A DNA stretch of 64,000 nucleotides from Roseivirga seohaensis (GTDB taxonomy: Bacteria; Bacteroidota; Bacteroidia; Cytophagales; Cyclobacteriaceae): assembly GCF_001592945.1 (NCBI RefSeq), contig NZ_LRPB01000006.1, positions 1 through 64,000 of the forward strand, written 5' to 3'. The notes under the pieces are model-generated. The model did no database searches. It had not been told where the DNA came from and saw only the letters and a list, made by a program, of their open reading frames with translations. Positions 14,976 to 16,738 of this stretch are shown here, piece by piece. The number at the start of each line of letters is the position of its first letter. Within the stretch, counting starts at the first letter, position 1. Made by a program: the position numbers and the translations under genes.

Positions 14976-16738
14976 ATGGAAAATTTTGTTGTCTCCGCAC
15001 GTAAGTATAGACCTGTTGGCTTTGAAGAAGTAGTTGGCCAAGGGCACATTACCACTACACTTAAAAATGCGATCGATAATAATCAGTTAGCGCAAGCTTT
15101 GCTTTTTTGCGGACCAAGAGGGGTTGGTAAAACTACTTGTGCTCGAATTGTTGCCCGAATGATCAATGACCAAAACATTGACAACCCTTTAGAAGGCAAC
15201 GACACCTTTAATATATATGAGCTTGATGCGGCTTCGAACAACTCGGTAGATGACATTAGAAATCTAATCGATCAGGTACGCTACCCTCCGCAACAAGGAA
15301 AATTCAAGGTATATATTATAGATGAGGTTCACATGCTTTCTAATCAAGCATTCAATGCTTTTTTGAAAACCTTGGAAGAGCCACCATCATACGCCATTTT
15401 CATTTTGGCGACTACTGAAAAACATAAGGTAATCCCTACGATTCTTTCTCGTTGTCAGATTTTCGATTTTAATAGAATTGAAGTCAGTGATATTTCTACC
15501 CAGCTAAAAATGATTGCTGATAAAGAGGGAATTGACACGGAAGACGAGGCTTTGCATCTGATTGCTCAAAAGGCAGATGGTGCTATGCGCGATGCTCTTT
15601 CTCTTTTCGACCTGATTGTCACTTTCTCGCACGGGCAGAAAGTAACCTATCAAAATACAATTTCAAACCTGCACATTCTGGATTACGATTATTACTTCAG
15701 AATGACAGACTACTTATTTAAAGAAGACACTTCTAATGTATTACTGACTTTTGATGAGATTCTGAAAAATGGGTTTGATGGCCATCATTTTATTGTGGGG
15801 CTCGCTAGCCATTTAAGAGATTTGATGGTGTGTAAAGACAATGCCACCATTCAGCTACTTCAGGTTTCTGACAATATTAAGCAGCGCTATAAAGCACAAG
15901 CTGATGCTACACCGCTTTCATTCTTACTCACGGCACTCAACATTGCAAACCAATGCGACTTGAGTTATAAAGGAAGCAAAAATCAGAGGCTTCATGTTGA
16001 ACTGGCTCTGGTTAAAATGGCGCACTTAACATCTGCTATTCGTTTGGCACACGTCACTCCAGAAGACGCTTCAAAAAAAAAATCCTAACTGAAGAGGTTG
16101 CTGATAAAAAAGGTGAGTATGCTCCAAAACAAGTAGACAGCGTATCGACTCCTGTTGTTAAAACACCACAAGCCGAACCTATTAAAAAGGATGTTCGAGC
16201 AGAAACACCTGCTGCTCAAACAAATTCGGAGCAACCTCCTGTAGCTCCCGCTCCAAAAAGGGCGCCTTCAAAAACGATTAGTATTCCTTCTCTTTCCGAT
16301 TTAAAAAATCAACTTAATAAAAAAGAAGAACCAACAGCAGGTGAAACTCCTACAGAACCAGTTTCGAACCGAAATAAGAGCTTTACTCTTGATGATTTAG
16401 ATAAAGTTTGGAATGCTTTTAAAGCTAAAAGAGAGGCAGAAGATAACAAGTTAGAGTTATTACTTTTGCAAGAACCCTATGAACTGGAAGGCAACATTGT
16501 TACCATTAAAATATCCAACGGAGCTTCAGAGGCTAGTTTTGAAAAATTTAGAGGTGACCTTTTAATGACTTTGAGAGATGGCCTTGAAAACGACAGCATT
16601 CTTCTCAAATCAGAAATTGTTGATGTGGCAAGAGAAAAAATGCTATATACTGATAAAGAGAAGTTTGAACATCTTAAAAAGAAGTACCCTGCTTTAAAAG
16701 ATTTACAAGAACGACTGGGTTTAGATCCGGAGTTTTAG
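14976..16738 (+). CDS. dnaX: DNA polymerase III subunit gamma/tau, -1 frameshift gene
   Basis: Clamp-loader subunit. The zero frame encodes the gamma form (370 residues, stop at 16086-16088) with the AAA+ ATPase: Walker A CGPRGVGKTTC, Walker B YIIDEVHML, and sensor TILSRCQIF. At 16073-16082 lies a run of ten A. A -1 shift there (SKKK then ILTEEV) leads into a frame open to 16738, giving a tau form of about 587 residues with a Pro/Lys linker and a C-terminal domain (FTLDDLDKVWNAFKAKR). The start is set at 14976 because MENFVVSARKYRP is the family's usual beginning; an upstream in-frame ATG lies at 14940. It converges with the next gene with no gap. A homopolymer sequencing error is the main alternative. 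Confidence 0.88.
16073..16082 (+). promoter_or_regulatory. A10 slippery site in dnaX
   Basis: Ten consecutive A read as AAA AAA AAA after TCA; the zero frame stops six bases later (TCC TAA). Slipping by -1 joins the open tau frame. No strong stem-loop is apparent just downstream, which favours transcriptional slippage (as known for the Thermus thermophilus dnaX A9 run) over the E. coli type of stimulated ribosomal frameshift, though both remain possible. Confidence 0.7.

What the first reader, a model, noticed from the sequence alone, without database searches (positions are those of the whole stretch)
16061..16738. dnaX makes gamma and tau through a ten-A slippery run
The zero frame stops at 16086-16088, six bases after AAAAAAAAAA. 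The -1 frame is open from that run to 16738 without a stop and encodes a Pro/Lys linker and a plausible tau C-terminal domain. The layout recalls Thermus thermophilus dnaX, where transcriptional slippage on A9 makes both forms, and E. coli dnaX, where the ribosome slips. No obvious downstream stem-loop is present here, which fits RNA polymerase slippage better. If general in this lineage it would extend the mechanism to Bacteroidota.
Basis: partly seen in the sequence, partly recalled or inferred. Interest (0 to 1): 0.72.

Follow-up and report, generated by a model that had tools for sequence, protein, structure and literature searches.

The report
dnaX slippage switch across Bacteroidota
A gene for a DNA-copying clamp loader is interrupted by a run of ten A letters on which the RNA-making enzyme most likely slips, so that one gene yields a short and a long protein; the same run is found in most of the related genes examined while the reading frame around it drifts.

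Summary
The window's dnaX has an A10 run (16073-16082), a zero-frame stop right after it and an open -1 frame that encodes the tau C-terminus. It is no assembly error: 17 of 17 fetched congeners have exactly A10 in the same layout. In an even phylum draw 115 of 156 dnaX genes carry A9-A11 at this place; in 60 hold-out genomes of the same class 49 carry A9-A12.

Evidence favours RNA polymerase slippage over ribosomal frameshifting. The run is kept while the genomic tau frame switches (160 zero, 152 -1, 7 +1). Both non-tau frames close within 10 codons in 247 of 265 genes and 45 of 46 hold-outs, against 20-27% background. Folding peaks directly 5' of the run, with no comparable peak 3'. A10 is about 28-fold rarer than a first-order estimate in this genome.

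Prior art: T. thermophilus dnaX, and a 2013 survey of two-ORF dnaX genes with A10. New, as far as my searches show: phylum-wide reach including unbroken genes, frame drift, the double stop signature, the 5' stem-loop tendency. The window itself has no significant stem-loop. No RNA or protein data were available.

The parts
14976..16088 (+). dnaX zero frame = gamma, 370 aa from ATG 14976 to TAA
   Evidence: Pfam PF13177, PF22608, PF12169; NCBIfam TIGR02397 above cut-off
16073..16082 (+). A10 run (sense-strand A), the proposed slippage site
   Evidence: exact A10 in 17 of 17 fetched congeners
16086..16088 (+). zero-frame stop TAA that ends gamma
16090..16092 (+). +1-frame stop TGA, which closes the third frame
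   Evidence: closure of both non-tau frames is general
16082..16738 (+). -1 frame: Pro/Lys linker and tau C-terminal domain, 218 aa and stop TAG; tau would be 369 + 218 = 587 aa
   Evidence: residues 19-215 match PRK14971 positions 414-612 of 614; found by the tau C-terminal profile, which was seeded with this piece
16052..16068 (+). weak 4-bp stem (CGUC/GACG) ending 4 nt before the run; its position matches the group tendency but it is not significant in the window
   Evidence: z = 0.08 (28 nt) and -1.01 (40 nt)

Best explanation
dnaX here is a two-product gene controlled by RNA polymerase slippage on a ten-A run at the gamma/tau boundary. The run fills the 9-10 bp RNA:DNA hybrid with rA:dT, so the nascent RNA can shift back and an extra A is added. 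Faithful A10 transcripts are read into the adjacent stop and give gamma (370 aa). Transcripts with one extra A (A11), or other lengths equal to it modulo 3, give tau (587 aa). Transcripts with two extra A enter the third frame, which also stops at once and gives a gamma-like protein. In part of the phylum a nascent RNA stem-loop ending 0-4 nt before the run probably strengthens the slip. Shown here: run, frames, conservation, stops, frame switches and the upstream fold signal. Inferred: that the slip is made by RNA polymerase, that A is added rather than lost, and the ratio of products.
For: (1) Run kept, frame not: 279 of 340 loci (window included) have A9 or longer (51 A9, 208 A10, 19 A11, 1 A13); tau frame zero in 129, -1 in 139, +1 in 5, unknown in 6. 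This set is enriched for broken frames; the even draw gives 63, 46, 1 and 5 of 115, the named loci give 48, 18, 2 and 1 of 69. The fewest frame changes on an approximate gamma tree are 40, and 29 among A10 genes alone. Pairs at 92-96% gamma identity differ in tau frame with A10 in both. (2) Both non-tau frames closed within 10 codons: 110 of 123 (tau zero), 132 of 137 (tau -1), 5 of 5 (tau +1) against 20-21% of linker positions and 23% at the homologous place in 47 run-free genes; hold-out 45 of 46 against 26.5%. A ribosome that only shifts -1 never visits the third frame. (3) Tau in +1 is rare (7 of 319 with run and known frame), which fits products falling off from +1A to +2A, as reported for T. 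thermophilus (PMC5009743, passage). (4) Folding peaks in windows that end at the run (-4.07 kcal/mol at gap 0, about -1.6 to -2.5 from 8 nt on) and not downstream; repeated in the hold-out (-5.43 against about -2.3, p = 4e-7). (5) Shine-Dalgarno-like pentamers are no commoner than purine controls. (6) Exact A10: 5 found, about 140 expected in the genome.
Against: No RNA or protein data. Loci are related, so p-values are inflated; at 70% clustering the upstream fold signal weakens (49 genes, mid-rank 0.385, p = 0.02), the synonymous-codon test is modest (z -0.58 against -0.27 at control places, p = 0.01), and run-free genes show a slight signal too (mid-rank 0.40, p = 0.034). By shuffle z-scores the 60 nt downstream are also slightly more folded (-0.43; tau-zero genes -0.61) than control stretches (-0.23, -0.15), against -0.56 upstream; with matched G+C the downstream excess vanishes. 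The window and its 17 congeners have no run-adjacent hairpin of -3 kcal/mol or better. A9 genes show no clear fold enrichment (mid-rank 0.447, p = 0.4). An A10 run holds A AAA AAA in every phase, so tau zero and tau -1 are each also compatible with a -1 ribosomal shift. The run is not universal: 61 of 340 loci lack A9 or longer, and presence changes at least 27 times on the tree.
Confidence: 0.85

Rival explanations
1. Programmed -1 ribosomal frameshifting on A AAA AAA, related to that of E. coli dnaX; tau would come from ribosomes that slip.
For: Tau in zero or -1 accounts for 312 of 319 genes with run and known frame, the two layouts a -1 ribosomal shift can serve. Slight downstream folding by shuffle z-scores. 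The review passage says one Chlorobium candidate has E. coli-like stimulators (PMC5009743, unpublished there).
Against: The third frame is also closed at once. No 3' structure beyond G+C-matched background, none in the window, none in the hold-out. Shine-Dalgarno-like pentamers are no commoner than purine controls (0.159 against 0.174). No A AAA AAG in the window's run. An upstream hairpin is reported to attenuate -1 frameshifting on 70S ribosomes (PMC6321510, passages).
Confidence: 0.08
2. Ribosome sliding on poly(A): ribosomes lose frame on consecutive AAA codons and leave in all frames.
For: Would explain stops in both other frames. Sliding on homopolymeric A is shown in E. coli systems (PMC4363877, passages).
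Against: The same paper reports robust truncated product with A11 but little with A9 or A10, whereas 259 of 279 runs in the first set are A9 or A10. A 5' stem-loop is not expected.
Confidence: 0.04
3. A DNA-level cause: assembly error, pseudogene, or a phase-variable tract that mutates between A9, A10 and A11.
For: Homopolymers are prone to both. The closest pairs that differ in frame do differ in run length (L130 A9 and L293 A10 at 99.2% gamma identity; L234 A9 and L243 A10 at 96.3%), so some switches are changes in the run itself or errors.
Against: 17 of 17 congeners and 22 of 33 families in the even draw share the run; the tau domain stays recognisable after the break; other close pairs keep A10 and differ in frame (L125 and L281, L119 and L277); 208 of 279 runs are A10 exactly.
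Confidence: 0.03

Closest known systems
Thermus thermophilus dnaX (transcriptional slippage on A9; Larsen et al. 2000, not read, seen as described in passages of PMC1088944 and PMC5009743)
   Same: dnaX, A-run at the gamma/tau boundary, stops close by in both non-tau frames, no ribosomal shift needed
   Different: There tau is the unslipped single ORF. In the window gamma is the unslipped product and tau needs the slip. Run is A10, not A9. No RNA data here.
Two-ORF dnaX genes of Antonov et al. 2013 (GeneTack; PMC3711429, passages read)
   Same: Zero frame gives gamma, -1 frame gives tau, A10 in nine of 17 genes, transcriptional realignment suggested
   Different: That survey concerned frameshifted genes. 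Single-ORF relatives here carry the same run; frame drift, the third-frame stops and the 5' stem-loop tendency are not in the passages I read.
Stem-loop-stimulated slippage in a Roseiflexus IS transposase (seen as described in PMC5009743)
   Same: Nascent RNA stem-loop directly 5' of the slippery tract
   Different: There the tract is T5C5 and a base is lost. Here it is A9-A11, and many genes, the window among them, have no clear stem-loop.
Escherichia coli dnaX (-1 ribosomal frameshifting on A AAA AAG)
   Same: Same outcome: gamma and tau from one gene
   Different: No A AAA AAG, no significant 3' stem-loop, no Shine-Dalgarno-like stimulator in the window; third frame closed

Membership tests
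Transcriptional-slippage dnaX (T. thermophilus type) | DnaX gamma core followed by a colinear tau C-terminus in the same gene | tested here: met
Transcriptional-slippage dnaX (T. thermophilus type) | Homopolymeric A run of nine or more at the boundary | tested here: met
   A10 at 16073-16082
Transcriptional-slippage dnaX (T. thermophilus type) | Nearby stops in both non-tau frames | tested here: met
   TAA 16086-16088 and TGA 16090-16092; group counts
Transcriptional-slippage dnaX (T. thermophilus type) | Tau encoded by one uninterrupted frame, gamma by slipped mRNA | tested here: not met
   In the window tau lies in -1; 129 of 273 first-set loci with run and known frame do have it
Transcriptional-slippage dnaX (T. 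thermophilus type) | mRNA population with different numbers of A; both proteins present | not testable with these tools
   No transcript or protein data
Two-ORF dnaX of Antonov et al. 2013 | Gamma in the zero frame, tau in -1, poly-A at the junction | tested here: met
   definition from PMC3711429
E. coli-type -1 ribosomal frameshifting dnaX | A AAA AAG slippery heptamer | tested here: not met
   The run is followed by T; the sequence shows only A AAA AAA
E. coli-type -1 ribosomal frameshifting dnaX | 3' stem-loop stimulator | tested here: not met
   Window z = 0.09; group no better than G+C-matched background
E. coli-type -1 ribosomal frameshifting dnaX | Shine-Dalgarno-like stimulator upstream | tested here: not met
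   None in the 20 nt before the window's run (read); group no commoner than purine controls
Stem-loop-stimulated transcriptional slippage | Stem-loop directly 5' of the slippery tract | tested here: inconclusive
   Group signal; window z = 0.08 and -1.01

The most novel reading that the evidence does not exclude
Most of Bacteroidota runs one cassette in dnaX, perhaps ancestral (not tested): a 9-11-A tract that fills the RNA:DNA hybrid, often with a nascent stem-loop butted against it and stops in both other frames. Because RNA polymerase slippage supplies several frames, the genomic frame of tau is nearly free to drift between zero and -1, so a gene for a replisome subunit is under little selection to keep one reading frame. 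The tract sits at 9-10 because shorter tracts do not slip enough and longer ones make ribosomes slide.
Probability: 0.6. Interest if true: 0.78.

Novelty: new variant of a known kind. Interest (0 to 1): 0.62.

Why it matters
If true, a phylum that includes many dominant gut and marine bacteria sets its gamma:tau ratio by transcription slips made on purpose, and annotation that calls the broken genes truncated or frameshifted is misleading. It gives many natural variants of one slippage cassette (length, stem-loop, polarity), which makes the rules of bacterial RNA polymerase slippage testable, and it supports the view that gamma is kept by selection, since run-bearing genes keep stops in both other frames.

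Tried and rejected
Shine-Dalgarno stimulator: a first count looked enriched (16.7% against 0.8-1.5%), but purine-matched pentamers are as frequent there (0.174 against 0.159); rejected. Run phase as an argument against ribosomes: dropped, because A10 holds A AAA AAA in all phases. A first hairpin rank test is invalid because of ties at zero; replaced (its counts, hairpin of -3 kcal/mol or better in 26% of 132 against 5%, stand). Pair counting on the Flavobacteriaceae hairpin: MAFFT gapped the 20-mers, so no covariation count was made. Of 36 Flavobacteriaceae loci 20 have 8 of 8 pairs abutting the run and 22 have 7 or more, background 0.5%, but most share one peptide (LASITFDGEKK or near it), so this is suggestive only. 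Run-free genes: 5 of 47 hold A AAA AA(A/G) in frame; how or whether they make gamma is open. In one search the values near 2038 at 12 nt and more downstream are an artefact, most likely of one locus cut by its contig end (L352). Literature: six searches of the open library on dnaX or slippage with Bacteroidota or other terms, and one on stem-loops and slippage; in the rows listed (one search lists 15 of 122) I saw no paper on phylum-wide dnaX slippage in Bacteroidota. Most subscription papers are not held.

Rows dropped: L001 (not dnaX) and L002 (second copy of the window) before all counts; 8 of 273 genes in the stop test for short linkers or stops beyond the locus end; 16 of 340 loci without a found tau C-terminus have no frame. 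Of, G386 and G436 gave no match and G390 only a partial one and were left out; 60 of its 147 matched genomes were fetched (first member of each new family plus extras; 59 of 60 from family codes not in the first set). Loci taken by place for the order were chosen because their frame was broken, so frame shares in the 340 are biased to breaks; the even draw is.

Full report
What is there. The window's dnaX starts at ATG 14976 and its zero frame ends at TAA 16086-16088, three bases past an A10 run at 16073-16082. The -1 frame is open from upstream of the run to TAG 16736-16738. Pfam finds the ATPase, lid and domain III of DnaX in the first part, and one NCBIfam model of full-length gamma/tau (PRK14971, 614 positions) matches both parts in order, positions 2-365 and 414-612. 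The -1 part is therefore the tau C-terminus and not a chance open frame. The +1 frame closes at 16090-16092.

Not an error. All 17 fetched congeners have exactly A10 with tau in -1, and of 25 other family members 20 have A10, 4 have A11 and one has A7. Exact A10 runs are rare in this genome: 5 on both strands against about 140 expected from the window's first-order composition; runs of 7 and 8 are also below that estimate in the window, by about half. Such avoidance is expected where A-runs slip; Baranov et al. 2005 studied it (PMC1088944, start of abstract and passages).

The wider group. I read 340 dnaX loci from Bacteroidota, the window included, and set the tau frame of 324 with an iterated profile of the tau C-terminus. 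In 279 a run of nine or more A lies at the gamma/tau boundary: 51 A9, 208 A10, 19 A11, 1 A13. The unexpected point is that the run is also present in genes with an unbroken tau frame: 129 with run and tau in zero, 139 in -1, 5 in +1, 6 unknown. This set is enriched for broken genes by my choice of loci. In an even draw over the phylum (158 genomes, 156 with a match) 115 of 156 have the run, in 22 of 33 families, with tau zero in 63, -1 in 46, +1 in 1 and unknown in 5; 41 of 156 lack it. Of the 80 loci with record titles 69 have it. Runs of nine are more frequent when tau is in zero (37 of 129) than in -1 (10 of 139; Fisher p = 4e-6, not corrected for kinship), as expected if a weaker slip suffices when tau is the unslipped product.

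Frame drift. On an approximate tree of the gamma part the fewest changes of tau frame are 40 among 273 genes (shuffled labels 88-102), and 29 among 206 A10 genes; tree errors can raise such counts. Run presence changes at least 27 times. At 95.6% gamma identity L125 (-1) and L281 (zero) both keep A10, and so do L119 (-1) and L277 (zero) at 92.1%; read by eye, small indels beside the run move the frame. Other close pairs differ in the run itself (L130 A9 and L293 A10 at 99.2%; L234 A9 and L243 A10 at 96.3%). Length near ten is kept more strictly than frame.

Stops in both other frames. From the run end, both non-tau frames meet a stop within 10 codons in 110 of 123, 132 of 137 and 5 of 5 genes (tau in zero, -1 and +1; 265 of 273 genes usable), against 20-21% of positions in the same linkers and 23% at the homologous place in 47 run-free genes. 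Averaged over 50 clusters at 70% identity it is 90%. The frame that a -1 ribosomal shift never reaches is closed within 5 codons in 96 of 123 and 119 of 137 genes (background 23% and 35%; cluster mean 67% at 70% identity). Messages in all three frames must therefore exist often enough to matter, as in T. thermophilus (PMC5009743, passages). The rarity of tau in +1 fits extra A residues in falling numbers: one extra A serves tau in -1, but tau in +1 would need two.

Structure. Among 132 genes at 80% clustering, windows of 25 nt that end at the run fold at -4.07 kcal/mol on average, those that end 8 nt or more further up at -1.6 to -2.5, and those downstream at -1.6 to -2.3. With matched G+C the upstream signal holds (mid-rank 0.325, p = 3e-8; at 70% clustering 0.385, p = 0.02) and the downstream one is nil (0.52, p = 0.4). 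In 65 of 78 genes with a fold of -4 or better the stem ends 0-4 nt before the run. That is where a nascent stem-loop stimulates slippage in the Roseiflexus element, and where a hairpin is reported to attenuate -1 ribosomal frameshifting (PMC6321510, passages). Limits: shuffle z-scores show a slight downstream excess as well (-0.43 against -0.23 and -0.15 in control stretches; upstream -0.56); without G+C matching the 50 nt downstream differ from their background at p = 0.03; the synonymous-codon test is weaker (-0.58 against -0.27, p = 0.01); run-free genes show a slight signal (mid-rank 0.40); A9 genes show none clearly; and the window's own fold is not significant.

Hold-out. Predictions were written down before 60 new genomes of the window's class were fetched, 59 of them with family codes not in the first set. 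Result: run of nine or more in 49 of 60 (8 A9, 37 A10, 3 A11, 1 A12); tau zero 31, -1 13, +1 2, unknown 3; both frames closed 45 of 46 (background 26.5% of 2887 positions); third frame within 5 codons 37 of 46; folding -5.43 at the run against about -2.3 at 8-15 nt up (p = 4e-7), no dip downstream. The predictions held. With the first set that is 328 of 400 loci with a run, tau zero 160, -1 152, +1 7, unknown 9.

Mechanism and rivals. RNA polymerase slippage on the run is the best reading (0.85). A -1 ribosomal shift can serve the zero and -1 layouts but explains neither third-frame stops nor the mainly 5' structure. Ribosome sliding reaches all frames but was reported as robust at A11 and slight at A9 or A10 (PMC4363877, passages). 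No transcript or protein was seen, so the agent of the slip is inferred.

Known and new. T. thermophilus dnaX is the model. Antonov et al. 2013 described two-ORF dnaX genes in which tau needs the slip, nine of them with A10 (passages); the window is a member of that type. Beyond it, as far as my searches in the open library go, are the phylum-wide reach including unbroken genes, the frame drift, the double stop signature measured against controls, and the 5' stem-loop tendency.

Noticed in passing
window 14976-16088 and the dnaX loci: The window's DnaX lacks the CxxCxxC zinc module of the ATPase domain. The motif is present in 227 of 340 dnaX genes and missing in all sampled members of some families (f26 15, f41 19, f39 4) and in the window and the four congeners printed, so it seems lost several times.
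   Followed up: partly
L346, L344, L345 (own genome): Other exact A10 runs of this genome lie inside long open frames: a cytochrome-oxidase-like frame of 604 aa (label by eye), frames of 376 and 234 aa. They may be further slippage sites.
   Followed up: no
phylum families f30, f31, f36, f38, f42, f47 and others: No sampled member of these families has the A-run, and where the tau frame was found it is unbroken; 5 of 47 run-free genes hold even A AAA AA(A/G). Whether they make gamma, and how, is unknown.
   Followed up: partly
Flavobacteriaceae loci such as L335, L340, L211 (20 nt before the run): A perfect 8-bp hairpin directly abuts the run in 20 of 36 loci; by eye L335 keeps a pair through changes on both sides.
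   Followed up: partly
L234, L134, L156, L171, L213, L390, L403: The seven genes with a run and tau in the +1 frame; some may be assembly errors (L234 has A9 where close relatives have A10).
   Followed up: no
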